IMG/VR virus record: IMGVR_UViG_3300030116_004132
Location: 1 to 31,878 of that record
Strand: one strand, 5' to 3'
Origin: a virus
DNA length: 31,878 nucleotides
Shown here: positions 1 through 22,343 of the stretch, piece after piece
How positions within the stretch are numbered: position 1 is the first letter of the stretch
How the letters are laid out: the number at the start of each line of letters is the position of its first letter
Position numbers and translations under genes: made by a program
Notes under the pieces: model-generated
The model's database searches: none
What the model was told of the DNA's origin: nothing
The model's input: only the letters and a program-made list of their open reading frames with translations

Positions 1-125
1 TCGTCCTTTTCCCCGTAGGTATACTTTGCCTGTTCGCAATACATCAGTATGTTTTCGTGTTCATGTGGTTTCAACCAGTTGTCCAACATATGAATTGGAA
101 CATCTTTTCCATAAACAAATTTCAT
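1..125 (-). CDS. Partial CDS at window edge, possible 2OG-Fe(II) oxygenase N-terminus
   Basis: Only the first 41 codons are visible; the gene runs off the left edge. The product begins MKFVYGKDVPIHMLDNWL. Its ATG shares one base with the TAA of the preceding oxygenase gene (TAATG), the same coupling used throughout this operon, which makes the start convincing. The opening pattern, a short strand, then 'DNWL', then an acidic helix, resembles the N-terminus of small 2OG-Fe(II) oxygenases. No iron-binding motif is in view, so the function is a guess from context. Confidence 0.55.
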   Translation of the reverse strand, partial: MKFVYGKDVPIHMLDNWLKPHEHENILMYCEQAKYTYGEKD

Positions 126-736
126 TACTTACTCGAATTGTATTGGGTTACTGCAAAGTTGAATGCAATGGAGATACGTGGATTGCCAGGTGTCGGTTTG
201 TTTGCCTTGACTTCGTGCATCAGATATGAAGGGAACATAATCAGATCTCCTTCTGTAATATCAGGAGAGAATGTTTCCTCATAGTTGTGTGAATCGAACT
301 CTAATGAATGAGATCGAATGATGCCCATCGGATCAGTAAAGGTCAATGGACTATGCACCTCCTTATCATAACATAGAAAATGAACACATGCAAAATGATT
401 TGGGTCTAAAGGATCGCCAATATGATTGTGCGACTCCTGATATTCTTCATCTTCATAACAATTATACCAACATTCGTCCACCTCCACTTCAAACTTGTTA
501 TCGAAGAAAGTTTTAATTAGATTATGATACTGTCTCTGTAGTTCTCCCTGAGACATAAAGAACCGATTGATGTCGTCTCTTTCGTGACTAGTCGTAATCT
601 TTGTGGTTAACCATCCTTCTGGTGGTGTTAATGTTCTCTTAGTTCGATTGATGAAAGGTAAAAGATCTTGCTTCAGTCTTTCATTGTCCTCAACCTGTCC
701 TTTATAATAAGAAACAGGAAATATTGTATGTCTCAT
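125..736 (-). CDS. 2OG-Fe(II) oxygenase-like protein (203 aa)
   Basis: The C-terminal half has the double-stranded beta-helix pattern of small phage 2OG-Fe(II) oxygenases. An HNH cluster lies at residues 103-105, a strand with 'FTDP' follows near 133-136, then 'GDLIMFPSYLMHEV' with His174, then Arg187 before the last strand (NPRISIAFNF). Arg187 would bind 2-oxoglutarate and His174 would be the distal iron ligand. The proximal site is H-x-H rather than the classic H-x-D, as in the 276-aa and 172-aa proteins of this window. The start overlaps the preceding stop as ATGA and the stop overlaps the next start as TAATG, so it is mid-operon. The substrate is unknown. Confidence 0.82.
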   Translation of the reverse strand: MRHTIFPVSYYKGQVEDNERLKQDLLPFINRTKRTLTPPEGWLTTKITTSHERDDINRFFMSQGELQRQYHNLIKTFFDNKFEVEVDECWYNCYEDEEYQESHNHIGDPLDPNHFACVHFLCYDKEVHSPLTFTDPMGIIRSHSLEFDSHNYEETFSPDITEGDLIMFPSYLMHEVKANKPTPGNPRISIAFNFAVTQYNSSK

Positions 737-2736: not shown

Positions 2737-2923
2737 GGAACTCATTCATATAGTAATCAACTGTAACCTCCATCTTGGCAGCTTCCTTCTCTAGGTAGTC
2801 GCCATGTTGAGCAAGACCTTTATAGTATTCTTGTCTCTGTTTCCATTTAATAATTTCGATTTCAGATTTAATCATGTAGTCCTTCAGTAATTCCATAAAT
2901 TGTTCTATTTCTTCGTCATTCAT
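2729..2923 (-). CDS. Small acidic helical protein (64 aa)
   Basis: The product is predominantly charged and helical (NDEEIEQFMELLKDYM, EIIKWKQRQEYYKGLA), with no membrane segment or known motif. Its ATG overlaps the halogenase stop by 8 nt (ATGAATGA), so it is probably translated with the halogenase. It is the last gene before the promoter at 2708. Function is unknown. Its position suggests an accessory to, or simple co-expression with, the halogenase. Confidence 0.72.
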   Translation of the reverse strand: MNDEEIEQFMELLKDYMIKSEIEIIKWKQRQEYYKGLAQHGDYLEKEAAKMEVTVDYYMNEFLV

Positions 2924-4664
2924 AAGTGACGAATCCTTTGGGTCTTTCCTTCCATTTTTGCTTTGTAGGTTTTACTTTTTGTACTTTCCTTTTAATACGT
3001 TCTGGCATTTGATCATATATCTCTTGTGGCACTTGATCTTGTGTCCCAACAAAAGTGTAATCATCCTTCTCTTCGTGTATACTCCTAGATAGGTATTCGT
3101 GTAGTGAAGGGCAACTCATCGCATAATGTATGTATTTCTTTTGTGTTTCCTTGTACAAATCCTGTAACCTATCGCAATGCAATTCTGGATCAAACTTTTT
3201 CAATATTCCTAATGCTCTATGCACCTGTGCATCAATCGGAGAATAATTCATCCCTGCAGCAATACACTGGAATCCTGCATTACCATCCCTAAATTGATGA
3301 TACTTATGTGCAGATGTAGCATAGTAGAGTAATTCAAGATTTTCTCCCATATCAGTTTCATAGTTCAATGAATTATTAACTGTTGGATCAATCCTAACTC
3401 TCTCTGTTACATCCTGCCAATATGGTGTATCATTTCTAGGACTCAATGCATAGTGCATAGCAACAAAGTTTGCGTGTCCATAGTAAATGTTTTTGAGTGC
3501 ATAGTTAAATGAATCTCTATCCCACTGATTAACAAAACCTTTGCGTAGTGTGTATATCAATGATAGTAACCACTCATACGTGGTCATCAATCCTGTACTC
3601 TCTAGTGGTTCAATAAAACCACTGGATAAACCAATCGCAACTACGTTCTTCTCCCATGTCTTTTCGTGTATTCCATTTCTCATTGTAATTGGTTTGAACT
3701 CAAGATCATCAACTGGAATCTTCTCATATCTGGTGCGAATATATTTCTTGAACTCTTCAAGAGCTTTATCATCACTGATATGTTTATCGCTATATGCATA
3801 CCCTGCACCTACACGTGACCATAGAGGTATATTCCATGCCCATCCATTATTAAGAGCAGTGCAATTTGTAAATGGTTGTAGTTGTGTAGTCTTATCTGTA
3901 TATGGTATGTGTGTTGCCCATGCTTTATTATTTGGAATCAAATTTTCAATGCTGTTGAATTTAACTCCCAATGCCTCCTCTAATAACAAACTCTTGAAAC
4001 CAGTGCAATCAATGTACAAATCAGCAGTTAGTTTTTGTTTGTCTGCTAATATTAGAGACTCTACCCCATCATCATTTGTATTAACCTTCTCAACTGTAGA
4101 GTTGATTAACTTTACACCTTTTGGAAGACAAATTGTTTTCTTAAGATATTGTCCGAATGCGGTAGCATCAAAATGAAATGCAACATCAGATACAAAGGAA
4201 AAACCAGGTGTTTTACCAGTGCTATCATCAGACATTTTATTGTTCTCTGCAACTGCAGCAATGGGATAATGGCAACGTGCATATGAATTACCATCAAAGA
4301 TACCACTTCTATTACCTTTTAAGAACCACCAGTCGTTTTGTCCTACTTGTTCTACTGGTCTTTGATATTCTCCAAATGGATAGTGGAATCCTCCTGTGTT
4401 CTTGCCTGACCAATCTGTAAACTTGATGCTTAACTTGTAACTTCCATCTGTTTCTTTTAGAAAGTCTTTATCCTCAAGTCCTATTAATGATGTCCAATGT
4501 TTTATACCACCAAGAGTACTCTCTCCAACTCCCAATATAGGAAAGTCTGGACTCTCAATGATAGTGACATTCATCTTTGGAAACTGTGTTGCAAATGTCG
4601 CAGCAGTCATCCAACCAGAAGATCCACCACCTACGATGCATACACTTTTAATCTTTTTGCTCAT
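2916..4664 (-). CDS. Flavin-dependent (tryptophan-type) halogenase (582 aa)
   Basis: The N-terminus has the FAD dinucleotide motif 'VGGGSSGW' at about residues 11-18, then 'VGEST' near 46-50. Lys77 in 'GSYKLSIKF' aligns with the catalytic lysine (Lys79 in RebH). The halogenase signature W-x-W-x-I-P is at 275-280. 'FIEPLESTG' near 350-358 contains the Glu-Ser pair that includes the catalytic glutamate. The family uses reduced FAD, halide and oxygen to make hypohalous acid, and Lys delivers it to an electron-rich aromatic. The frame is open to a TTG at 4688, but the ATG at 4664 is the better start. Length is slightly above typical (~530 aa). Cyanophage Syn10 is known to encode an active family member, VirX1. 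The substrate here is unknown, and I see no dedicated flavin reductase nearby. Confidence 0.88.
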   Translation of the reverse strand: MSKKIKSVCIVGGGSSGWMTAATFATQFPKMNVTIIESPDFPILGVGESTLGGIKHWTSLIGLEDKDFLKETDGSYKLSIKFTDWSGKNTGGFHYPFGEYQRPVEQVGQNDWWFLKGNRSGIFDGNSYARCHYPIAAVAENNKMSDDSTGKTPGFSFVSDVAFHFDATAFGQYLKKTICLPKGVKLINSTVEKVNTNDDGVESLILADKQKLTADLYIDCTGFKSLLLEEALGVKFNSIENLIPNNKAWATHIPYTDKTTQLQPFTNCTALNNGWAWNIPLWSRVGAGYAYSDKHISDDKALEEFKKYIRTRYEKIPVDDLEFKPITMRNGIHEKTWEKNVVAIGLSSGFIEPLESTGLMTTYEWLLSLIYTLRKGFVNQWDRDSFNYALKNIYYGHANFVAMHYALSPRNDTPYWQDVTERVRIDPTVNNSLNYETDMGENLELLYYATSAHKYHQFRDGNAGFQCIAAGMNYSPIDAQVHRALGILKKFDPELHCDRLQDLYKETQKKYIHYAMSCPSLHEYLSRSIHEEKDDYTFVGTQDQVPQEIYDQMPERIKRKVQKVKPTKQKWKERPKGFVTYE

Positions 4665-4794
4665 TCTTTTTCTTTCTTCGTTCTTCAACTAATTTTAGGA
4701 ACTCCTCATCTGGAGTAAAGATTACAGGACCTTCGGCAATCCTCTCTTCCAGTTCATCCAATAATGGATCCTTTTCATTGTTTTCGTTAGTCAT
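4648..4794 (-). CDS. Small acidic/basic protein (48 aa)
   Basis: The product starts MTNENNEKDPLLDELEERI and ends in a strongly basic tail (ERRKKKNEQKD). The ATG lies two bases after the previous TAA. The stop falls 17 nt inside the halogenase gene, consistent with the tight tiling here. There is no known domain. It occupies the only room between the HTH gene and the halogenase, which is the main support for its reality. Confidence 0.62.
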   Translation of the reverse strand: MTNENNEKDPLLDELEERIAEGPVIFTPDEEFLKLVEERRKKKNEQKD

Positions 4795-4796
4795 TG

Positions 4797-5081
4797 TTAC
4801 AAGAGATCTAAGTCTTTTCCGTGTCTGAGTTTATCCACTTCAACAGGTGGCACAAAGGCATTGTAATTATTTCTAATTTGCTCTAGTCTATCTGCTTGAG
4901 CACCTAGTTTTTTTAAGACAGTGCGACTATTAACATCAAACTTTTTAGCAGATGCATCAATGTCCTTTCCATGAAGAACATCAATTAAAAAATCACATTC
5001 AGACTCATCTAAGTCTGATTCTAACCTATGTATTGTTCCTAAAATGCTCAATTTAAATACCCCTATCTTGTGTGGTTTCAT
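4797..5081 (-). CDS. Putative helix-turn-helix protein (94 aa, or 84 aa from a TTG start)
   Basis: The region 'DESECDFLIDVLHGKDI' followed by 'SAKKFDVNSRTVLKKL' reads like a sigma-region-4/LuxR-style helix-turn-helix ('...a.kf.v...TV...l'), so DNA binding is plausible. The ATG at 5081 gives a 29-nt overlap with the upstream oxygenase and has no clear ribosome site. A TTG at 5051 lies one base after the upstream TAA with AGGGG 8 nt before it. I consider this TTG (84 aa, MSILGTIHRL) equally likely. It could regulate this operon or host genes; nothing in the sequence decides. Confidence 0.7.
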   Translation of the reverse strand: MKPHKIGVFKLSILGTIHRLESDLDESECDFLIDVLHGKDIDASAKKFDVNSRTVLKKLGAQADRLEQIRNNYNAFVPPVEVDKLRHGKDLDLL

Positions 5082-5943
5082 CTACGATTGTATCTAATTG
5101 GGATAACTTTGGATACATTCCCTTAAAGGTGTCTCCAGTTCGTTTATCCTTTTTCATATCGTCATCCATTTCTATTCTACCTGTATTTTCATTGAACTGC
5201 AAGATCATCTTTCTACCTGATTGTCTTGCTTCCTTTCTAAAGTTATCAGATACACCAGTATGATCATTTGTATATGTGGTTACGTGGTCACTAAGCCATC
5301 CTGTACAAACATATTTTGAACCCCTAGTAACAACTTCCCCTCTATGATGAAAATACCAAGAAGCAGGGAAACAAATTAATTTGCCTTGTTTTGGTGCTAC
5401 ACTGAATATGTCATTTTTTCCTGGTCCGACTCTAAACTGCGTATGTCCACCATCATAATCATCATTGAGATAAAAGAGATATGTAAATAATCTCCTTGCC
5501 TGTAATACAGATCCAGAATCTCTATATCCTCTAATTGGAAATACTATTGTATCTAAAATTGGAGAGACATCATCATCAGCATGCCAATCATATGACTCTC
5601 CCTCTTGAGTTCTTTGTATCTGGTATCCAGAGTCAACTAACTCTGATTTTGTACACTGGACTTCGCTCCCTAATTTATCTTTTATAAACTGCAAGTATTT
5701 CTTTACATATGGATTCAATGCCTTAAAAAACATTTCATCCTCTTCTTTCCAATCCTCCCATTGAGATATCCATAAATCAGTGGATTTTTTGATACCAGTA
5801 TTATCATTACCAGATTCTTCGGATGTTATACCCTTACTCTTACGATTATCGTATTCAAATTTGTCAATAATCTTTTTACATTCTCTTGGTAGGAGTACAT
5901 CATCATATTCTGCTACCATTTCGGCAAAGTTAGTTGCCATCAT
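5053..5943 (-). CDS. 2OG-Fe(II) oxygenase, prolyl-4-hydroxylase type (296 aa)
   Basis: This is the most canonical oxygenase in the window. 'YDWHADDD' gives the H-x-D pair His121/Asp123. 'LFTYLFYLNDDYDGGHTQF' is the core strand plus glycine turn. 'GKLICFPASWYFHHRGE' gives His200, and 'GSKYVCTGW' gives the 2OG-binding Lys210. The ~75-residue C-terminal tail after the core is polar and Asp/Lys-rich with no known motif. GGGAGGA lies 8 nt before the first of two tandem ATGs (5943 or 5940), and the gene overlaps the upstream stop by 14 nt. The substrate is unknown. Confidence 0.87.
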   Translation of the reverse strand: MMATNFAEMVAEYDDVLLPRECKKIIDKFEYDNRKSKGITSEESGNDNTGIKKSTDLWISQWEDWKEEDEMFFKALNPYVKKYLQFIKDKLGSEVQCTKSELVDSGYQIQRTQEGESYDWHADDDVSPILDTIVFPIRGYRDSGSVLQARRLFTYLFYLNDDYDGGHTQFRVGPGKNDIFSVAPKQGKLICFPASWYFHHRGEVVTRGSKYVCTGWLSDHVTTYTNDHTGVSDNFRKEARQSGRKMILQFNENTGRIEMDDDMKKDKRTGDTFKGMYPKLSQLDTIVDETTQDRGI

Positions 5944-6448
5944 CGTTAGTTCCTCCCTTCAAATTAAATGCTAAAATTATTCTTTTTTCCATTATAGGTG
6001 GACTGAAGTGATATATCTCTGGATCCCAGATTAAAACATCACCCACAACAACTTTAGAAGATGTTGAATTACTTTTGTGTAGTGGATCTTGAAAATAAGT
6101 TGATTGTCCATCGTTTAAAAACAAACAACCAGAAGCACTTATTTCTCTTGCCACATGATTATGTATAGGATGAAATCCACCAGGTTCATACACTTGAACC
6201 CAAGAGTTATCGAATGCCTCCTCTGGTGCTATGACATCCAAAAGTTCCTTAATCCAAGGAACTGAATGTGGCATATTTGGGGTTCCATAAGTCGTAGTTA
6301 ATCTCCCATGTTTAACATACTGACCATATTTTAAACACCACTCCTCAAGTTTATCAACCCACCCATCAGGTATATCGATATGAGACTTGATAACAATGGA
6401 CGGTGGAAATAGTTGTCTGTGTTCAGTTTTTAATTTTTCTTTACTCAT
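5930..6448 (-). CDS. 2OG-Fe(II) oxygenase-like protein (172 aa)
   Basis: The double-stranded beta-helix core shows 'WVQVYEPGGFHPIHNHVA' with His96-x-His98, then 'STYFQDP', then 'VVVGDVLIWDPEIYHFSPP' with His147, then 'KRIILAFNL' with Arg156 for 2OG. The proximal motif is H-x-H, as in the 203-aa and 276-aa paralogues, so the three probably form one subfamily. The start overlaps the 134-aa methyltransferase-like gene by 8 nt and the stop overlaps the next oxygenase start, so it is translationally coupled on both sides. It could also be described as cupin-like. Confidence 0.78.
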   Translation of the reverse strand: MSKEKLKTEHRQLFPPSIVIKSHIDIPDGWVDKLEEWCLKYGQYVKHGRLTTTYGTPNMPHSVPWIKELLDVIAPEEAFDNSWVQVYEPGGFHPIHNHVAREISASGCLFLNDGQSTYFQDPLHKSNSTSSKVVVGDVLIWDPEIYHFSPPIMEKRIILAFNLKGGTNDDGN

Positions 6449-6845
6449 AAAATGCTTCTAATCCAACTGGTTTTCCAAAACTGTAGTCATAAGTTAATGC
6501 ATCGTTGCAAACATAATGTGGATGATCAGGTTCAACACCTAATCTTTTACACAACTCAAGATGATTATCCTCCATAAGTTCTACTGCATACAACATATTG
6601 TTTAGTATGTGTTCCTCATCATGATACTGCAATAATGTATTTTTAAGAGTAACCAAAAAGTTACCACTACCTGCTGAATTATCTAGGAAAGTAGAATTAG
6701 GATTCTTTTTTATATCATCTGGTATATCGTTTATCATTTTAGCACAAACATCCATAGGTGTAAACACTTCGCTAGTAGCGTTTATCCTATCATCGGATCT
6801 TTCAATTACAGACCCTACACTTTTATTATGATCATTCCTCTTCAT
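6441..6845 (-). CDS. N6-adenine methyltransferase SAM-binding half (134 aa)
   Basis: The sequence has the entry motif of gamma-class N6-adenine methyltransferases: 'EVFTPMDVCAKMI' near residues 26-38, motif I 'LDNSAGSGNFL' (54-64), a motif II acidic end 'YAVELMEDN' (86-94) and motif III 'CNDAL' (113-117). It stops right where motif IV (N/D-P-P-Y) should follow. An NPPY motif instead occurs in the C-terminal part of the 1039-aa protein encoded just upstream and coupled by an ATGA overlap. It may be half of a split methyltransferase, or the truncated remnant of a full-length one. The SAM-binding residues look intact. Confidence 0.8.
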   Translation of the reverse strand: MKRNDHNKSVGSVIERSDDRINATSEVFTPMDVCAKMINDIPDDIKKNPNSTFLDNSAGSGNFLVTLKNTLLQYHDEEHILNNMLYAVELMEDNHLELCKRLGVEPDHPHYVCNDALTYDYSFGKPVGLEAFYE

Positions 6846-9800
6846 AAAATATCAGGAATAGTTCTGAATAATTCTTTTGAGTTAGTATTTACTATTCTGT
6901 TCTTTAGAACCATTTGATGCACCTCATCAGACCTCAAATAATCTGCAAGTTTATTACTCTCCTCTTCCGAAGATGTTTTTATAATAACTGTAGATCCACT
7001 GATAGCATGATCGTATGGTTTGATACGAATCTGTCCAAAACCTTGTCCACCATATTTACTATTCATTACGACTCCATGTTGATTAACACAACAAGTATAC
7101 TGAGACTTATCAACATTAGTGATTTGCATCTCTCCATTTTTACCACCCATTGTGGTTATCATAGGATACTCTCCCTCAATCAATTGATTTAAGTTCAAAT
7201 CTCCACGTTGATAGCGATGTCCCATGTTGTTAGGAACATCTGAAACAAAATCTGGATTAGTAAATCTAATACAAGTATCATCAGTAAGTTGAATATTCTT
7301 TACTGTACCATCAAGATAAGTTAGTTTTGTTAGTCCAGTATATCCACGTTTCCATGTACAAATACAGGTTTCTGTCATTGATATGGATGGGAATGTATCA
7401 GGAGATAATGCTTCAATAGAAACAATACCTGGTGTTGAAAACAAAGTTCTTCTAAACTTTGATGTGGATTTAGCAAAGTGTTTTGATCTGATTACCTCTG
7501 ATACATAATCAGATCTTTTCATTGCACTTAGATAGAAATGTGTATCTAAAGTTTTTGCACACCCACCTGTAGTTGCACCTGTTACTGTAGATGTATCTGT
7601 ATATGGTGGATTACCAACTGTAGCACTAAACTGCATTTTGTAATTACTAAGGTTGTCGGTTACATTAATTTTAGCATTAATCTGCTTTATTGCATAGCGA
7701 TGAGTAGGATCGTTTTCCCACACCACTATATCATCAGGTTCCCAAGATTTATTCTCTATTGCATATAAAGAATGAAGTCCAGAGGGATCTCCATGTATAT
7801 ACAACTTTTCAGTTGCACACTTTTTTGAAGGAACCATCCTATCAAGAATATCTAATGAAAGTGTTTTTTGATTCTTTCTTGTTGTTGCAAGTTTCTGTAA
7901 GGTTCCACATTCATCTTTAGACATAGAATGTTCAATATCTATGATCCCTTGGTTGATTCTATTGATCCATGATTTAGGTATAATCTTTTGTTCTAAACAA
8001 GATTTAATAATACCAGTGGTGTCTCCTGTATCATGTTCATAATATTCTGAATTAAGAATACTATCTACACTTTTAGGTGTGGATTTATTCTTTATCATAT
8101 GGAAGATAACTAATCCTATTCTCTCCATGTATGCTTGAACAGTTTCTGTTTTCTGTGCTATTTCAGACTTATCATAGTGTGTAGAAAATTTGGATGAACT
8201 GGTAAGTTTCTTATTACTCTTTGCGTTAGCATTGTTCTCATTTACTGTAAAGGAACTCCATGAAGATAACTTCGCACTCTTCTGGAAACTATCAAATTCA
8301 ATGTCTCCCAACTTAAGAAAATCTAACTGAGATACAATACTTGATATTAAAGATATTGCACTATCCACATCATTAGATAAAATTTCATTTAGACGTTCTG
8401 GTGTTACTTCTTCAAAATCAGAGAAGTATTCAAAGATAGGAACTAAATCAAGAAGTTCATATTCAGATTCTGTTAATTCATGATTCAAATCACATGCAGT
8501 AAAATACATGTTTCTGATTGTAGTAAAACAACGCTCTGGGCAAAAATCAATTACATCCCAAGAATTTCTTTTTGTCGATCCACCACGGAAAGCAAACTGT
8601 GTCCATTGTTCTCTTGATGATCCTTCTGCACAATTCATAACAGTATCAATACCCTCTGCAGTTAGACCAAGAACATTTGCAGTTTTGGTTAGGATAACTG
8701 TAGAAGTATTGGTATCAATATGTGATCTGATTGTCTCAGAATTTTCTCTAGTATCTGAAGTTACAACTAATGGTTTAAACCTTGTTGATTTAAAATAATC
8801 TACAAGTGCATGACATGATGCCATAGAAGGCAAAGTTATCATTATGTGTCTACAATTCTTTAGTATTCTTTTGTTATACTTTATTCCATCTTGAGTAAAA
8901 ACTTTACTCATAAATTCATCAACTAATATTGGTTCAGCAAAATCATCCTCATCTTTGTTTACCCTAAAAATGTTACCCATTGCATCAGGATCATCGCCAT
9001 ACAAATCTTGGTATTTACTAGACTCATACTTTGCAAGAATCAATCTCATCTGTGGAGAATTTTCATACTCTTTTATACCTTGCAGTTTATACAACTGCTC
9101 CTCAAAATATGAATACACAAATCTAAATTTAGGAAAATCTTCTAAGATTTTATGTGCAGTTCCTGAGACATACAACACTTTTGTATCGAAGTGATCTCTA
9201 AGACTTATCCATTGATCTCCCTCATATCCAAGATGTGCTTCATCAAATACTATCAGATCAATATTACAAGGTAAGTTCTTATATCTGTTGGGAGCTTGAA
9301 TAGTTGAATATAGAACTATTTGTTTGTCAGTTCCCATCCAATATTCTATCTCATTCTTAAACTGATCTACTTCTCCATCACGAATATCAATGAATATAAT
9401 ATTATCAAAGTTTTTAAATTCTTGGGAATCATCTCTCCATGATTGTTTAGGGGAGTTTCTATATGAAACAACTAAGGATACTTTAACACCACTCTCTACA
9501 ATAGAGGAAAGAACCATTGTAGATTTACCTGCACGACACTTTGCAAATAACAAGTATTCTTTCCACTCATCCCATGTTGAAGTTATCTCAGATACAAACT
9601 CTTGCTGATGTTTGCGAAGTTTACGATATTCTTTCTCTTCTACGTTATCTGTAAAAAACTCTTCTTCGATAAGATCTTTAACAACATCAATACTTAAACC
9701 ATGACCCTCTTCAATCTTGTAAGTCTCTCTACCAGTTTGTGTAATACCACGTTGTTTTTTTAACCAAGTATGTATCTCATGATCTCTACCATCAAAATCT

Positions 9801-9961
9801 GTCCACCATCCTCTCTTTATCCTTGCACTACCAACTGCTGCTAAATCTTGTTTTGATTTACCGTAGTCTCCACCTTTATGTCTATCTTCATATGTGTGTA
9901 TGGTTTCTCCTAAACCGAAGGCAGACGGATTACCTTTAAACCCGTCAAGATAAATGTTCAT
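6842..9961 (-). CDS. GIY-YIG-like / SF2 helicase / methyltransferase-like protein (1039 aa)
   Basis: Residues 1-82 look like a GIY-YIG/T5orf172-type nuclease: 'IYL' near the start, 'LGET' and 'EDR' in the middle, 'EIHTWL' and a closing 'ETYKI'. Residues ~110-480 are an SF2 helicase: Walker A 'CRAGKST' (142-148), DEAH (240-243), 'SGTAH' (266-270), and a motif VI-like 'QFAFRGGS' (455-462). Residues ~715-790 look like a methyltransferase with a degenerate motif I, acidic 'WENDP' (748-752) and intact motif IV 'GNPPY' (783-787). Residues ~790-1039 are probably target recognition. The order nuclease-helicase-methylase recalls single-chain restriction enzymes (type ISP). AGGAG sits 3 nt before the ATG. 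A role in restriction of host or rival DNA is inference. Confidence 0.82.
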   Translation of the reverse strand: MNIYLDGFKGNPSAFGLGETIHTYEDRHKGGDYGKSKQDLAAVGSARIKRGWWTDFDGRDHEIHTWLKKQRGITQTGRETYKIEEGHGLSIDVVKDLIEEEFFTDNVEEKEYRKLRKHQQEFVSEITSTWDEWKEYLLFAKCRAGKSTMVLSSIVESGVKVSLVVSYRNSPKQSWRDDSQEFKNFDNIIFIDIRDGEVDQFKNEIEYWMGTDKQIVLYSTIQAPNRYKNLPCNIDLIVFDEAHLGYEGDQWISLRDHFDTKVLYVSGTAHKILEDFPKFRFVYSYFEEQLYKLQGIKEYENSPQMRLILAKYESSKYQDLYGDDPDAMGNIFRVNKDEDDFAEPILVDEFMSKVFTQDGIKYNKRILKNCRHIMITLPSMASCHALVDYFKSTRFKPLVVTSDTRENSETIRSHIDTNTSTVILTKTANVLGLTAEGIDTVMNCAEGSSREQWTQFAFRGGSTKRNSWDVIDFCPERCFTTIRNMYFTACDLNHELTESEYELLDLVPIFEYFSDFEEVTPERLNEILSNDVDSAISLISSIVSQLDFLKLGDIEFDSFQKSAKLSSWSSFTVNENNANAKSNKKLTSSSKFSTHYDKSEIAQKTETVQAYMERIGLVIFHMIKNKSTPKSVDSILNSEYYEHDTGDTTGIIKSCLEQKIIPKSWINRINQGIIDIEHSMSKDECGTLQKLATTRKNQKTLSLDILDRMVPSKKCATEKLYIHGDPSGLHSLYAIENKSWEPDDIVVWENDPTHRYAIKQINAKINVTDNLSNYKMQFSATVGNPPYTDTSTVTGATTGGCAKTLDTHFYLSAMKRSDYVSEVIRSKHFAKSTSKFRRTLFSTPGIVSIEALSPDTFPSISMTETCICTWKRGYTGLTKLTYLDGTVKNIQLTDDTCIRFTNPDFVSDVPNNMGHRYQRGDLNLNQLIEGEYPMITTMGGKNGEMQITNVDKSQYTCCVNQHGVVMNSKYGGQGFGQIRIKPYDHAISGSTVIIKTSSEEESNKLADYLRSDEVHQMVLKNRIVNTNSKELFRTIPDIL

Positions 9962-10111
9962 TGTCTCCTAATAAATTGGGTGCGAGAAACAAAAACTAGG
10001 ACTTACAGGACGTAATTTCTCAGAGAGGATTTACGATCTTGTGATCAAATCAAGATTTCGACCTGATCTGGGACAACCATAGATCCTTGCCTGTTTTGTT
10101 TCCCTGCATAT
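9962..10111 (-). promoter_or_regulatory. Long 5' leader of the 1039-aa gene, GATC-rich
   Basis: About 145 nt lie between the predicted transcription start and the ATG at 9961, unusually long for this window. The leader contains four GATC sites within about 55 nt (10034-10086) and an inverted repeat ATCTTG/CAAGAT. It could encode an 11-codon leader beginning ATGGTTGTCCCA. No larger gene fits. It may hold an operator or a translational control element. Confidence 0.4.
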
Positions 10112-10139
10112 ATTATAGCATTAAAAAACCCCCTGTAAA
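10112..10139 (-). promoter_or_regulatory. Sigma70-type promoter nested in a terminator
   Basis: On the minus strand, TTTACA (-35) and TATAAT (-10) are spaced 16 nt, with TGC before the -10 (extended form). The -35 is exactly the loop of the hairpin at 10127-10146, and the spacer contains its 3' arm and U-tract. It should drive the 1039-aa gene and the operon after it. Confidence 0.72.
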
Positions 10140-10146
10140 GGGGGTT
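10121..10146 (-). terminator. Intrinsic terminator after the 89-aa gene
   Basis: On the minus strand, AACCCCC pairs with GGGGGTT around a 6-nt loop TTTACA and is followed by further T residues (six counting the arm's two). It sits about 10 nt after the stop of the 89-aa gene, so it should end the cp12 transcript. Confidence 0.85.
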
Positions 10147-16646: not shown

Positions 16647-16678
16647 ATTATAATATAGCATTCATTCAATAATGTCCA
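16647..16678 (-). promoter_or_regulatory. Weak promoter-like region before the 46-aa gene
   Basis: The minus strand carries TGGACA (16673-16678), TGCTATATT (16652-16660) and TATAAT (16647-16652). Spacing from TGGACA is 15 nt to TATATT and 20 nt to TATAAT, neither ideal. It overlaps the end of the methyltransferase gene. Confidence 0.3.
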
Positions 16679-17753
16679 TAATGGACACTTTGTAATCTGT
16701 CACACGTTTCTGTATTAGTTTACCATATTCTTCATTAAGTTCGCAACCTATGTAATCTCTACCTAATTGTTTTGCTACCATTCCAGTAGTACCCGATCCC
16801 ATGAAAGGATCTAAAATTATATCTCCTTTCTCACTCCCTGCTTTGATACAAGGTTCAATTAACTCAGGTGGAAATACAGCAAAGTGTGCACCTTTGTATG
16901 GTTTATTTGTTACTGACCAGACAGATCGTTTATTCTTTGTTGGATATGATTTTGTAAGTCCGCTATGCGGTTGGAGTCCTGTTCCTGCGTTGTGGTATTT
17001 TCCGTTTGTTCTGTCTCTTGTTCCCCAATCTTTTGCGGGTTCTTTGATTGCTTCATTATTGTAGTAATACTTCTTGTTTTTACTGAATAAAAATATATAT
17101 TCGTGTGCTTTAGTACACCTATCCCTCACACTTTCTGGCATAGGGTTAGGTTTATGCCAAATAATATCTTGTCTAAGATACCATCCATCTGCTCTCATTG
17201 CGAAGGCAAAGAGCCAGGGGATTCCAATAAGGTCTTTTTCCTTGAGTCCTGAGATTCTATTTCCTCTACGAGGACACACATCTGGTAAGTCTTGTTTAGT
17301 ATTTGAGACACTTTGTTTTGGAAGTCCTTGTCCTTTTCCTGGTCTGTAGTTATAGTAACTATCGCCAAGATTAACCCAACAAGTTCCATCATCTGTGAGC
17401 ACATTTCGCACCTCCTTGAATACGTTTACTAATTGATCAATATATTCTTCTGGAGTCTCTTCCAATCCGATTTGATCATCTTGTCTTATTGCACCACACT
17501 TAGGGCAAACAGTTTTGTATATTGCATCCCCTACCCCTGCCATCTTATCATGATTTTTATGACCAGTAATACAATTACTAGGATTAACTTTTGAGTCTCT
17601 CATATGATTGCAATTTGGATCTCCTCCTATCCAAGTAGCAGTTCCATAATCACGTAAACCAAAATAAGGTGGAGATGTAACACACATCCTTGCAGGTTCG
17701 TCAAATTGTTTGAGTGTCTCTCGACAATCTCCAAATAAAATAGTGTCTCTCAT
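16662..17753 (-). CDS. Site-specific DNA methyltransferase, beta class (363 aa)
   Basis: Motif IV 'TSPPYFGLRDYG' comes first (residues ~26-37) and motif I 'LDPFMGSGTTGMVA' comes near the C-terminus. This is the permuted beta-class order; TSPPY is usual in N4-cytosine methylases, although N6-adenine activity cannot be excluded. Between them are 'DDGTCWVNLGDSY' and 'ADGWYLRQDIIWHKPNP'. An insertion near residues 48-90 has 'CNH' and 'CPKCG', a probable zinc-binding finger. It would methylate phage DNA to resist restriction or alter expression. No cognate endonuclease is next to it. The ATG overlaps the 34-aa stop as ATGA. Confidence 0.92.
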   Translation of the reverse strand: MRDTILFGDCRETLKQFDEPARMCVTSPPYFGLRDYGTATWIGGDPNCNHMRDSKVNPSNCITGHKNHDKMAGVGDAIYKTVCPKCGAIRQDDQIGLEETPEEYIDQLVNVFKEVRNVLTDDGTCWVNLGDSYYNYRPGKGQGLPKQSVSNTKQDLPDVCPRRGNRISGLKEKDLIGIPWLFAFAMRADGWYLRQDIIWHKPNPMPESVRDRCTKAHEYIFLFSKNKKYYYNNEAIKEPAKDWGTRDRTNGKYHNAGTGLQPHSGLTKSYPTKNKRSVWSVTNKPYKGAHFAVFPPELIEPCIKAGSEKGDIILDPFMGSGTTGMVAKQLGRDYIGCELNEEYGKLIQKRVTDYKVSIMDIIE

Positions 17754-17854: not shown

Positions 17855-18123
17855 TAAGTTAACCCCATAGCGATTTTCATAAATTGAAACTGAGGATCAA
17901 ACCCCATAATAATTTTACTGATTCCTATTGTCAATAGGAATGCAAACATAATTACAACATCCCACATTTTATTTTTTATATAAAATGGTAATGCAAGTGA
18001 TTCAAAGATTACATTAAGCATAGCACCAAAAAAAGTACTTACATGTAATGTAACAAAGTATCCTAGTATTATACCATATGTGCCTATCATTCGAGCAACA
18101 ACAATTAATCTGTTTGTTTTCAT
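17854..18123 (-). CDS. Small membrane protein (89 aa)
   Basis: Two clear hydrophobic spans (about residues 12-30, IGTYGIILGYFVTLHVSTF, and 54-73) flank a moderately hydrophobic middle segment near 34-48 that could be a third span. The N-terminus is basic (KTNRLIVVARM). It probably lies in the host inner or thylakoid membrane. It is coupled to the helicase gene upstream (ATGA) and to the 34-aa gene downstream (TAATG). I recall similar cyanophage proteins without known function. Confidence 0.75.
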   Translation of the reverse strand: MKTNRLIVVARMIGTYGIILGYFVTLHVSTFFGAMLNVIFESLALPFYIKNKMWDVVIMFAFLLTIGISKIIMGFDPQFQFMKIAMGLT

Positions 18124-19292
18124 GATCTGATAACTGAGGTAGCTGCCTGTCCTTTGTTGAATACAGTATCTACAACTGCTTCAACCTTTCTTGCGGTTGA
18201 AATACCAACCTTAGAGTAAACTGGAACACATACAAGACCATAAACCTTGTCCTCTGCACCCTTACGGATTACTCTACCAATAGTCTGACTAATACCAATG
18301 TAATCCATAGATCTCATAAACAATACTGCCTCAAGACCTTTTACATTGATACCCTCTGAGAGGATGCTGTGATGGAGTACAACAAACTTTGTACCATCTA
18401 CACCCCACTCGTTAAGTGTGGTAAAGAACTCTTCTCTACTAACCTTCTTACCATTAACAAAAGCACCTGTCTTAGAAGTAATAAACATCCAGTTGTATCC
18501 ACGTACTTGTAGATCTACAACAAAAGGAGTTTGAGATATCAGGTTAGTAATCTGCTTTGTAGACTTTGCACATATCAATACTTTGTCCTTCTGAATGTTA
18601 TCAAGAGCATTGATCATTTGATCGCAATCAGCATCTACAACCAACTCGTCCTTCTCTAGTATTCTTGTCTTGTATACTGCAACCTTTGGTGGTAAGATAT
18701 GTCCTTCCTCCACTAACTTAGGTGCAGGTACTTGACAAATAACATTACCAAAGATAGCAGGATTGTTCATACCTACCTTAAGAGGTGTAAGAGAATGCTT
18801 TGGTGTAGCAGTAAAGAAGTATGCTCTTGCTGAATGTGTTGAGAAGTGCTCAACTGCTTCAACAAAGTTCTTCTGAACTCCATTGTGTGCTTCATCAAAG
18901 TAAATGGTATCTACATGAATCTCAGACTCCACGACTTTATGGAGAGAATGATATGTTGTGAATATTATCTGATTGAATGCACATTTCTTTGCTGCCCAAA
19001 CAGATATACGAGTTGAATCAGTTGTAGAGTAATACTTTGTCTCTCCACTATGAACGTGCAGTACATCATCAGGATCAATATCAATCATTTCACGGAACTC
19101 TGAGCATAACTGCTTTGCAAGTAATATACGTGGTGCAACTACTACAATAGTCTGAGGAGCACTCTTGAACTGATATATCGCATCTTCTATCATGCACATT
19201 GTTTTACCACCACCAGTCGGAACAATAACTTGTCCCTTAGTGTTAGACTGCATAGCAACTAAAGAATCAATTTGGTGTGGACGTAATTGCAT
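18120..19292 (-). CDS. SF2 DEAH-box helicase (390 aa)
   Basis: A compact superfamily 2 helicase. The N-terminal 'LRPHQIDSL' is a Q-like motif. Walker A 'PTGGGKT' is at 25-31, DEAH at 133-136, motif III 'FTATP' at 160-164, motif V 'ILSEGINVKG' near 310-319 and motif VI 'QTIGRVIR' at 336-343. It resembles UvsW/type III restriction-subunit helicases but is shorter than T4 UvsW (~500 aa) and lacks an obvious extra N-terminal domain. A likely role is ATP-driven remodelling of branched DNA or R-loops during replication and recombination. A sigma70-type promoter lies upstream, but no ribosome site is evident before the ATG. Confidence 0.88.
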   Translation of the reverse strand: MQLRPHQIDSLVAMQSNTKGQVIVPTGGGKTMCMIEDAIYQFKSAPQTIVVVAPRILLAKQLCSEFREMIDIDPDDVLHVHSGETKYYSTTDSTRISVWAAKKCAFNQIIFTTYHSLHKVVESEIHVDTIYFDEAHNGVQKNFVEAVEHFSTHSARAYFFTATPKHSLTPLKVGMNNPAIFGNVICQVPAPKLVEEGHILPPKVAVYKTRILEKDELVVDADCDQMINALDNIQKDKVLICAKSTKQITNLISQTPFVVDLQVRGYNWMFITSKTGAFVNGKKVSREEFFTTLNEWGVDGTKFVVLHHSILSEGINVKGLEAVLFMRSMDYIGISQTIGRVIRKGAEDKVYGLVCVPVYSKVGISTARKVEAVVDTVFNKGQAATSVIRS

Positions 19293-20876: not shown

Positions 20877-22343
20877 TTATTTTTTGATTATGACTGAACC
20901 GTTCAAAACAGATCTATGGGGAACATAATTTTTTTTCTTTTTGATACTTTGTAATACTTCATGTAATGATTTTGAATCTTCTAATATCTTTTTTGCTTTG
21001 GGTAAATCTTTCAAAAATTTATTTACTGAATCTACGTTTATCATTTCTAAACCATTACTAACCTGTATAAAACTATCAATATGAAATTGAGAGTCCTCAT
21101 CTGTAATTCCACAAGGTATAAATTCAAGAGAACATTTCTCTTCATATGCTTTCATCCAATCTGTTTTATTATCAGTCATATACTGCCAGAATGGAGAATC
21201 CGTTCTGTTAGTATTATAGTGTAGGCATATAAAATTAAACACATCTACATAACTTTCCTCATTAAAATTATTATAATTTATCCTATCAAACTCTAAGAAT
21301 TTAAGAGTGGTATTATTCTTTACAAAGAATTGTATTTGGTTGTAAAGTATCTGAAGTCCTGTTGATTCTAATGGTTCAATAAATCCACTTGCAAGACCAA
21401 CTGATAAGCAATTCCCTATCCAGTTCTTTTTATAATAGCCTGGTTTGTAATGAATTATTCTTGGATCTTCATTTAACTCTACACCATGATTCTTTTTCAA
21501 CCATTCATTATAATTTTTCTTCGCCTCTTCATCAGTAGTAAACTTAGATGAATATACATAACCAGTTCCATATCTTTTCCTCAATGGAATTTGCCATGTC
21601 CAACCATCTTTTGTTGCTTCTGCTTGTGTATATGATGGTATTTCTACAAGATTATGAGGTATTTGCTGTGGGATTGCTCTGTCTAATGGGAGATAATTTG
21701 TAATATCAACCCAATCTGGATTAAGATGTTTGAATAAAACATTGCTAAATCCAGAAGCATCAACATAAAAATCAGCAGTTACTTCTCCCTTATTTTTAAA
21801 TACAATACTTTGTATACTCTTTCCGTCTGAATTTACTTTCTCTACTACATCATCAATATGATCTATTTCATCTTTAATATCATCTAAAATATATTTTGTA
21901 ATTAGTTGCGTATCAATATGAACTGCGTGATTGTAATAAAAATCATGACTAGGAACTGTTGTAGTTGCTTTATTATATAAGGTTCCTCCATTAAATGTTC
22001 CATTTGGAATTGAGTGTAGAGATTCTGGATACTCTCCTCTTGAATTATCAAGATTACATTCATTAAATCCATGAAAATATTCTTTATTCTTCGTCCAATT
22101 TTTAAATAGAATTCCTAATTTTACTGTACTTCCAGTATCTTTTATAAAATCTGCAGGATGAATATGAAGATATCGTCTAATGAAATCTACAAATGCTTGT
22201 GTTGTACTCTCTCCAACACCTATCGTTTTTCTTTTACTATCGTAATATACTTCTACTTTAACTCTACCTGCAAAAAATCTTTTGAATACAGCTGCAGTCA
22301 TCAGTCCAGATGTACCAGACCCAATAATAATAATTTTTTTCAT
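20877..22343 (-). CDS. Flavin-dependent halogenase, second copy (488 aa)
   Basis: FAD motif 'IGSGTSG' is at 7-13 and 'VGEST' at 43-47. Lys75 in 'STVKLGILF' is at the catalytic-lysine position. W-x-W-x-I-P is at 248-253 ('GWTWQIP'), and 'FIEPLESTG' places the Glu-Ser pair at 326-327. All family hallmarks are present. At 488 aa it is shorter than typical tryptophan halogenases. It is clearly divergent from the 582-aa copy by eye outside the motifs, so it is not a recent duplicate. Its place between two tail-fibre genes, 8 nt after the 723-aa stop, suggests late expression with virion genes. The substrate is unknown; I see no flavin reductase in the window. Confidence 0.87.
   Translation of the reverse strand: MKKIIIIGSGTSGLMTAAVFKRFFAGRVKVEVYYDSKRKTIGVGESTTQAFVDFIRRYLHIHPADFIKDTGSTVKLGILFKNWTKNKEYFHGFNECNLDNSRGEYPESLHSIPNGTFNGGTLYNKATTTVPSHDFYYNHAVHIDTQLITKYILDDIKDEIDHIDDVVEKVNSDGKSIQSIVFKNKGEVTADFYVDASGFSNVLFKHLNPDWVDITNYLPLDRAIPQQIPHNLVEIPSYTQAEATKDGWTWQIPLRKRYGTGYVYSSKFTTDEEAKKNYNEWLKKNHGVELNEDPRIIHYKPGYYKKNWIGNCLSVGLASGFIEPLESTGLQILYNQIQFFVKNNTTLKFLEFDRINYNNFNEESYVDVFNFICLHYNTNRTDSPFWQYMTDNKTDWMKAYEEKCSLEFIPCGITDEDSQFHIDSFIQVSNGLEMINVDSVNKFLKDLPKAKKILEDSKSLHEVLQSIKKKKNYVPHRSVLNGSVIIKK

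What the first reader, a model, noticed from the sequence alone, without database searches (positions are those of the whole stretch)
6441..9961. Restriction-modification-like pair with methyltransferase motifs divided between two coupled genes
The 134-aa gene ends just after motif III of an N6-adenine methyltransferase and has an intact SAM motif (NSAGSGNF). The NPPY catalytic motif appears only in the C-terminal part of the upstream 1039-aa nuclease/helicase-like protein. The two genes overlap as ATGA, so they should be made together. This suggests a methyltransferase rebuilt in trans, with gene order reversed relative to motif order. The alternatives are decay of a full methyltransferase or a SAM-binding regulatory subunit. 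A nuclease-helicase-methylase machine on a phage could attack host or competing phage DNA. I know of no described system with this exact split.
Basis: partly seen in the sequence, partly recalled or inferred. Interest (0 to 1): 0.78.

Follow-up and report, generated by a model that had tools for sequence, protein, structure and literature searches.

The report
Phage DNA methylase split in two
A marine phage encodes a DNA adenine methylase as two separate genes, one carrying the cofactor-binding half and one the catalytic half fused to a helicase; the same two halves occur split or fused in other phages, which makes this a natural test of how such enzymes are cut, swapped and rejoined.

Summary
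The 134-aa gene is not a truncated methylase but a member of a family of SAM-binding halves (motifs X-I-II-III); relatives lie in 80 phage records and 360 viral-contig stretches. An NPPY-type gene occupies the slot just upstream in 74 of 83 loci, and in 8 of the other 9 that gene runs off the contig. Conversely, 108 of 110 loci found by the NPPY half have the SAM half within 1 kb downstream; the other 2 end there. Aeromonas phages carry both halves as one gene in the same order, and that protein's moderate-confidence model matches circularly permuted (beta-class) methylases across both halves. In two T4-like phages the pair sits in T4's dam slot.

Five close relatives lack that half and the whole nuclease-helicase, yet keep both methylase halves under purifying selection. 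Best reading: a split, permuted N6-adenine methylase with an optional Type ISP-like nuclease-helicase. Assembly, SAM binding and restriction are inferred.

The parts
6441..6845 (-). SAM half (134 aa): motif X EVFTP about 6756-6770, motif I NSAGSGNF 6657-6680, motif II about 6564-6587, motif III about 6486-6503; no NPPY
   Evidence: phrog_4376; alignment; profile hits on CamA and M.BseCI motif X-I region, E 0.001-0.003; motif names recalled
6842..9961 (-). 1039-aa nuclease-helicase-methylase protein; stop overlaps the SAM-half start as ATGA
9662..9961 (-). N-terminal domain, residues 1-100; T5orf172/GIY-YIG nuclease by homology only
   Evidence: homologues L031, L072, L087 above Pfam cutoff; the window's own sequence no hit; alignment
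8462..9634 (-). SF2 helicase-like ATPase, about residues 110-500; Walker A K146 and DEAH 240-243 present
   Evidence: HsdR 3h1t, UvsW 2oca
7832..8461 (-). linker region, residues 501-710; position of a coupler, not modelled
   Evidence: position between helicase and methylase matches; inference
7637..7810 (-). cis first half (predicted beta1-beta3) with degenerate SAM motif GDPSGLHS, about residues 718-775
6845..7636 (-). catalytic half plus target-recognition region, residues 776-1039; NPPY at 7601-7612
7637..9970 (-). cassette (nuclease-helicase-linker-cis half) absent in L015, L016, L017, L019 and L092 with both flanks retained
10112..10146 (-). terminator-like hairpin with an overlapping promoter-like site (TTTACA-16-TATAAT, TG before it) ahead of the operon
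   Evidence: consensus matches; numbers in the region not above shuffles

Best explanation
The locus encodes a natural split DNA N6-adenine methyltransferase. The 134-aa protein is the SAM-binding first half of the Rossmann domain (motif X and beta1-3, motifs I-III). Residues 776-1039 of the 1039-aa protein are the catalytic second half (NPPY) plus the target-recognition region. The two are translated together and are proposed to dock beta1 against beta4, making one active site in the motif order IV...TRD-X-I-III, that of circularly permuted beta-class enzymes, although the motifs themselves look gamma-type. In this phage the catalytic half is fused to a nuclease-like domain and an SF2 helicase, giving a Type ISP-like restriction-modification machine; the fused N-terminal part includes a degenerate, probably SAM-dead first half, which I read as a leftover or placeholder. 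Steps supported by computation: obligate pairing, natural fusion, fold classes, cassette loss, purifying selection. Steps inferred: that the halves bind, that SAM sits only in the small subunit, that adenine in DNA is methylated, that DNA is cut.
For: Stand-alone SAM-half family. NPPY ORF upstream in 74 of 83 loci, 62 of those 74 overlapping it. SAM half within 1 kb downstream in 79 of 80 short-NPPY loci and 29 of 30 window-type NPPY loci, the other two cut by contig ends (80 of 166 kept for the first set, all 30 for the second). 26 of 74 catalytic partners start within 40 aa of motif IV and so have no first half of their own, including P-SSM2. Fusion: L021's split 341-aa partner matches residues 3-264 of the 415-aa PX29 protein (29% identity, E 3e-21), and PX29's SAM-half match follows in the same chain. 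VIA-align of the fusion model: the 20 best rows span both halves (1 to 369-408), Z 8.6-10.5, among them M.BceJIV, MboIIA, RsrI, CcrM and EcoP15I Mod. Canonical motif I in 74 of 74 SAM halves but in 4 of 48 cis halves, equal to the shuffled expectation of 4.0. Helicase-less relatives: flanks 89-97% identical, dN/dS about 0.11 for both halves against the window; within that group 0-3 nonsynonymous against 2-12 synonymous codons in the catalytic half. The pair replaces dam in the primase-dCTPase interval of KpV477 and PSD9.
Against: The window's C-terminal 350 aa already fold as a whole gamma-class methylase in the model (CamA Z 18.7, M.TaqI Z 18.3), so the trans half would have to displace the cis half or act otherwise. 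The cis motif GDPxGxHS is conserved among its relatives, which is odd for a pure relic. S-CAM7 isolate CC03 has a partner with an intact-looking motif I, DPAMGGGQY, and NatCom_35866 a partner with its own motif X and DPACKTG. In ACG-2014f the SAM half lies upstream of its candidate partners. The fusion model is only moderate (pLDDT 67, pTM 0.64), Foldseek found nothing at E<=0.001 for it, and Z 8.6-10.5 is not far above the 7-8 usual for models without a clear match (note). The helicase-less catalytic gene has no obvious ribosome-binding site (by eye). No direct evidence of binding, methylation or cutting.
Confidence: 0.7

Rival explanations
1. The 1039-aa protein is a self-sufficient methylase-helicase-nuclease whose cis half binds SAM through a variant motif (GDPxGxHS with an acidic motif II), and the 134-aa protein is an accessory that binds SAM as a sensor or stabiliser.
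For: Complete gamma-type fold in cis; conserved cis motif within its subfamily; intact-looking cis motif I in S-CAM7 CC03; K-T-G variants in NatCom_35866 and the Lactobacillus protein.
Against: 26 of 74 partners have no cis half at all; the cis halves of several partners begin directly at beta1 without motif X; the cis half is missing in L015, L016, L017, L019 and L092 while the SAM half is kept; cis halves carry no canonical motif I above chance.
Confidence: 0.2
2. The SAM half is a SAM-dependent regulator of the nuclease-helicase rather than part of a methylase.
For: SAM is an effector of some helicase-type restriction enzymes (recalled); the genes overlap.
Against: Most short-form loci pair the SAM half with a 186-207 aa catalytic half and no fused helicase, and the fusion proteins contain only catalytic and SAM parts.
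Confidence: 0.05
3. The locus is a decaying full-length methylase.
For: Degenerate cis motif I.
Against: SAM half full length against its own family; dN/dS 0.05-0.12 over SAM, catalytic and helicase segments in the six comparisons that were not saturated.
Confidence: 0.03

Closest known systems
Type ISP restriction-modification enzymes (LlaGI, LlaBIII)
   Same: Order nuclease - SF2 helicase - helical linker - gamma-type N6A methylase - TRD; the window C-terminal model matches LlaGI (Z 16.5) and LlaBIII (Z 15.1).
   Different: Type ISP are single chains with an Mrr-family nuclease (PMC4666363 abstract start, PMC4872093 passages); here the N-terminus is T5orf172-like by homology and the SAM half is a separate protein.
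Beta-class (circularly permuted) amino-methyltransferases (M.RsrI, CcrM, MboIIA, M.BceJIV, EcoP15I Mod)
   Same: Order IV...X-I-III as gene order here and as one chain in PX29; the fusion model aligns across both halves.
   Different: The halves are separate proteins here, and the motif I type (NSAGSGNF, EPSCGDGN) is like the gamma/N6_Mtase family rather than DPFxGSG (recalled).
Circularly permuted M.EcoKI-like DAMs of jumbo phages (PMC7824862, passages seen)
   Same: Probably covers the fused PX29-like form: a permuted Clade 2 DAM in phages.
   Different: The passage mentions permutation only; none of the 12 of 17 passages shown mentions a split methylase.
Natural two-polypeptide C5 methylases M.AquI and M.EcoHK31I (PMC3404938, passages seen)
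   Same: One methylase made of two polypeptides.
   Different: Cytosine-5 enzymes split in the variable region or at motif IX, not between the SAM half and the catalytic half.
Lactobacillales 'Eco57I methylase-domain protein' + 'N-6 DNA methylase' pairs (e.g. L. brevis plasmid NC_008499.1)
   Same: Large ResIII-Eco57I protein overlapping a downstream SAM-half gene by one base.
   Different: Larger proteins (about 1480 and 235-245 aa), distant in sequence (35% over residues 16-95); function not described in the records.

Membership tests
Type ISP R-M enzyme | single polypeptide holding all activities | tested here: not met
   SAM motif lies in a separate gene
Type ISP R-M enzyme | Mrr-family nuclease at the N-terminus | tested here: not met
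   No Mrr hit for the 1039-aa protein; aligned homologues hit T5orf172
Type ISP R-M enzyme | SF2 helicase-like ATPase | tested here: met
   ResIII E 5.2e-8, Walker A and DEAH conserved
Type ISP R-M enzyme | all-helical coupler between ATPase and methylase | not tested
   residues 501-710 were not modelled
Type ISP R-M enzyme | gamma-class methylase and TRD at the C-terminus | tested here: met
   Fold only: CamA Z 18.7 over model 4-350, LlaGI Z 16.5; motif I degenerate
Beta-class amino-methyltransferase | order IV-VIII - TRD - X - I-III | tested here: met
   As adjacent genes here and as one chain in PX29
Beta-class amino-methyltransferase | both halves in one chain | tested here: not met
DNA N6-adenine methyltransferase | SAM-binding motif I and NPPY catalytic motif in one functional unit | tested here: inconclusive
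   both present, but in two proteins whose binding was not shown
DNA N6-adenine methyltransferase | methylates adenine in DNA | not testable with these tools
   needs co-expression and modification sequencing
Pfam N6_Mtase (PF02384), 134-aa protein | score at or above the gathering cutoff | tested here: not met
   20.2 against 20.4 bits
Pfam Eco57I (PF07669), 1039-aa protein | score at or above the gathering cutoff | tested here: not met
   21.4 against 25.3 bits

The most novel reading that the evidence does not exclude
The SAM half is a detachable cofactor cartridge: one conserved small subunit serves very different catalytic/recognition proteins, and in proteins such as this one a SAM-dead cis half caps the catalytic half until the SAM-loaded subunit displaces it, so that nuclease-helicase and methylase are switched by subunit assembly. 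The family would then show, in living phages, the steps of the fission-fusion route to circular permutation: gamma-order protein with dead cis half plus trans SAM half, then catalytic half plus trans SAM half, then the fused beta-order enzyme.
Probability: 0.3. Interest if true: 0.78.

Novelty: new variant of a known kind. Interest (0 to 1): 0.62.

Why it matters
How methylases came to exist in circularly permuted classes is usually argued by two models, duplication and fission-fusion, whose relative weight is debated (PMC3320104, passages seen). This family offers separate halves, a variant with a redundant dead half, and a natural fusion, all testable in one laboratory strain. A conserved SAM subunit that pairs with divergent catalytic halves would also be a natural split-m6A reporter, and it gives function to gene families now labelled 'hypothetical' (phrog_4376, phrog_5172, phrog_11371 are 'unknown function'). 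The optional nuclease-helicase cassette shows phages moving between a methylase-only state and a full restriction-modification-like state at the same locus.

Tried and rejected
Decay or truncation of the 134-aa gene: rejected. Internal start at Met776 giving a short catalytic isoform: considered because a Met sits there in all 10 proteins of alignment A4, but I see no ribosome-binding site before it (by eye), so not claimed. RNA families and tRNAs in the window: no hits. PADLOC on the large protein: no family at E<=0.01. NCBIfam on the large protein: none at E<=0.01. The short catalytic half against PDB sequences gave only METTL5 at E 0.1. A scan of viral contigs with the Lactobacillus SAM half found no relative. 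Only two structure jobs were allowed and no coordinates are returned, so the 1039+134 complex, the distance between motif I and NPPY, and the linker could not be examined. L056's 1063-aa upstream protein, which lacks the motif searched for, was not examined further. Neighbours of the Lactobacillaceae matches were not read (two plasmid records were).

Caveats on counts. The 80 loci are the best of 360 by SAM-half similarity, so SAM-half conservation within them is partly selection by the search; the reverse sets were chosen by the catalytic half. Contigs were not dereplicated and several appear in more than one set (e.g. L024/L106, L012/L183). In one search, 15 hand-picked pairs were compared; 11 had catalytic halves at 19-28% identity with SAM halves at 66-73%, the other 4 had catalytic halves at 41-89%. 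The locus with the most distant SAM half, L094, counts as a partner through an earlier motif match in the same 1482-aa protein; its NPPYQ is at residue 1146. L103 and L104 are called Ah1 and phiAS5 from record lengths only.

Papers: passages only of PMC7824862, PMC3404938, PMC3320104, PMC4872093 and PMC4335053 (the last mentions 'split DNA methyltransferases' of 2-3 subunits as a class, by personal communication); the start of the abstract only of PMC4666363; all else as search listings. That no paper describes this split rests on nine searches of the held open-access library. Motif names, the alpha/beta/gamma classes and the M.TaqI motif were recalled.
Full report
WHAT IS THERE. The window is a 31,878-base virus record. 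On the minus strand a 1039-aa gene (6842-9961) is followed, with an ATGA overlap, by a 134-aa gene (6441-6845). The small protein has EVFTP, NSAGSGNF and VELMEDN, which I read as motifs X, I and II of an amino-methylase, and ends after the motif III region. The large protein has ResIII helicase motifs and NPPY at residue 784.

THE SMALL GENE IS A FAMILY OF ITS OWN. It matches phrog_4376 from end to end. tblastn finds relatives in 80 phage records at E<=1e-3; the 43 best listed (54.9% identity or more) are cyanophages or a marine virus. In the eight such records opened the gene is 124-145 aa. In IMG/VR 360 stretches encode relatives and the best 80 were kept; in one-per-species bacterial and archaeal genomes the pattern search gave only two.

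ITS PARTNER IS AN NPPY PROTEIN. In 74 of 83 loci (L012-L094) an ORF with an NPPY-type motif sits in the slot just upstream; in 8 of the other 9 the upstream ORF runs off the contig, and one (L056) has a 1063-aa protein without the motif; other same-strand ORFs of 90 aa or more carry the motif in 8 of 433 cases. 62 of the 74 pairs overlap. One of the cut ORFs (L051) is nonetheless related to the catalytic part of the PX29 fusion, E 5e-13. The reverse test: 79 of 80 short catalytic halves and 29 of 30 window-type catalytic halves have a SAM half within 1 kb downstream, and the two exceptions end at the contig edge. Exceptions in order exist: in two ACG-2014f isolates the SAM half is upstream of its candidate partners.

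THE PARTNERS DIFFER GREATLY. They are 186-207 aa proteins that begin at motif IV, 240-340 aa proteins with a first half in cis, 380-520 aa proteins, and helicase fusions of 1020-1120 aa. Of 74 partners 26 have fewer than 40 residues before motif IV and therefore no first half. In 11 of the 15 hand-picked locus pairs the catalytic halves are only 19-28% identical while the SAM halves are 66-73% identical; the loci were retrieved by the SAM half, so part of that contrast is built in.

A NATURAL FUSION. Aeromonas phages PX29 and Aeh1 have one 415-aa gene with NPPY at residue 9 and the SAM half near residues 280-370. The split 341-aa partner in L021 matches PX29 residues 3-264 at 29% identity, E 3e-21, and phrog_11371 covers both parts. 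A further profile, phrog_9133, is matched by the SAM half at 734-812 and by catalytic halves at about 802-872, the unpermuted order. The AlphaFold model of the PX29 protein is moderate (pLDDT 67, pTM 0.64), and Foldseek gave no match at E<=0.001. Among the 1000 chains that VIA-align then compared, the 20 best rows, Z 8.6-10.5, span both halves in order and include M.BceJIV, MboIIA, M.RsrI, CcrM, M1.HpyAVI, EcoP15I Mod and M.PvuII, while CamA and M.TaqI rows cover only one half or the other. I take this as good but not decisive support that the two halves form one permuted methylase domain.

THE SURPRISE IN THE LARGE PROTEIN. Residues 690-1039 alone give a better model (pLDDT 73.9, pTM 0.76); residues 718-770 form a beta-alpha-beta-alpha-beta unit with block pLDDT mostly 90-97. 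The model matches whole gamma-class methylases: CamA Z 18.7 over residues 4-350, M.TaqI Z 18.3, LlaGI Z 16.5. So the large protein does have a first half in cis. Its would-be motif I reads GDPSGLHS. Across the 48 partners with a cis half, a canonical motif I pattern occurs in 4, exactly the 4.0 expected from shuffling, against 74 of 74 SAM halves. Several cis halves begin at beta1, without room for motif X. Against this reading: the GDPxGxHS motif is conserved in its subfamily, S-CAM7 CC03 has an intact-looking DPAMGGGQY, and NatCom_35866 has a partner with its own motif X and DPACKTG.

A CASSETTE. Window bases 7637-9970, which encode the nuclease-like domain, helicase, linker and cis half, are absent from L015, L016, L017, L019 and L092, whose flanks are 89-97% identical in the main matches and whose catalytic gene starts at the Met equivalent to residue 776. 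Five other close loci have the 1039-aa form. dN/dS between the window and relatives is 0.05-0.12 for catalytic, SAM and helicase segments in six comparisons; two comparisons with L031 were saturated. Among the five helicase-less loci the catalytic half shows 0-3 nonsynonymous against 2-12 synonymous codon changes per pair; SAM-half changes there are too few to judge. So the catalytic half without helicase and cis half is maintained.

FUNCTIONAL CONTEXT. In T4, dam lies between gene 61 (primase) and gene 56 (dCTPase). In Klebsiella phage KpV477 and Shigella phage PSD9 the same interval holds the split pair, in KpV477 with a 110-aa gene between the halves. This suggests replacement of Dam by the split enzyme. 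N-terminal domains of three aligned homologues of the large protein are T5orf172 (GIY-YIG-like) by Pfam; the window's own and S-CAM7's gave no hit. Helicase relatives in the PDB include HsdR (3h1t) and UvsW (2oca).

BEYOND PHAGES. A Lactobacillus MAG has a 1482-aa ResIII-Eco57I protein overlapping a 244-aa SAM half. In the family of that genome 30 of 301 genomes match the SAM half; in 22 the match lies in an ORF of 234-262 aa, in one in a broken copy and in seven as a weak hit inside a longer ORF. 71 plasmid records match, 32 of them Enterococcus. In the two plasmids opened the pair is adjacent and overlaps by one base. So the arrangement is also bacterial.

INTERPRETATION. Best supported: a split, permuted N6-adenine methylase whose catalytic half is here fused to an optional nuclease-helicase, working like a Type ISP enzyme but failing its definition (single chain, Mrr nuclease). 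How the trans half coexists with the cis half is open; displacement is my bold reading, not shown. Use by the phage is inferred: protection of its DNA in the short form, and possibly restriction of host or rival DNA in the long form.

NOVELTY. Split C5 methylases (M.AquI, M.EcoHK31I) are known (PMC3404938 passages), a permuted M.EcoKI-like phage DAM has been noted (PMC7824862 passages), and 'split DNA methyltransferases' are mentioned as a class (PMC4335053 passage). I found no description of this split in nine library searches. Hence: new variant of a known kind.

Noticed in passing
window 9962-10105 (-): The 144-nt leader before the 1039-aa gene has closing ends that can pair (GGGAAACAAAAC with GUUUUUGUUUCUC); its interior is replaced in L018 and L020, while helicase-less L015, L017 and L019 keep the window's version. 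Folding z-score -1.85; no Rfam match.
   Followed up: partly
window 16662-17753 (-): A second DNA methyltransferase gene (363 aa, phrog_67, E 5.9e-79), near a helicase gene at 18120-19292.
   Followed up: no
window 2916-4688 and 20877-22343 (-): Two tryptophan halogenase genes (phrog_2928) in one phage fragment.
   Followed up: no
window 125-736, 1110-1688, 1857-2699, 5053-5943, 5930-6448 (-): Five 2OG-Fe(II) oxygenase-like genes, two of them directly downstream of the SAM half.
   Followed up: no
L080, L090, L091: Two NPPY/NPPF genes in tandem ahead of one SAM half, as if one SAM subunit could serve two catalytic proteins.
   Followed up: no
L009 5085-5486 and 12001-12402: S-CAM7 isolate 0910CC49 carries two separate catalytic + SAM-half pairs, each with an ATGA overlap.
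   Followed up: partly
L008 4421-5000: In phage MA01 about 580 nt without an annotated gene separate the helicase-NPPY gene from the SAM half; in several other loci a gap of about 560 nt is found.
   Followed up: no
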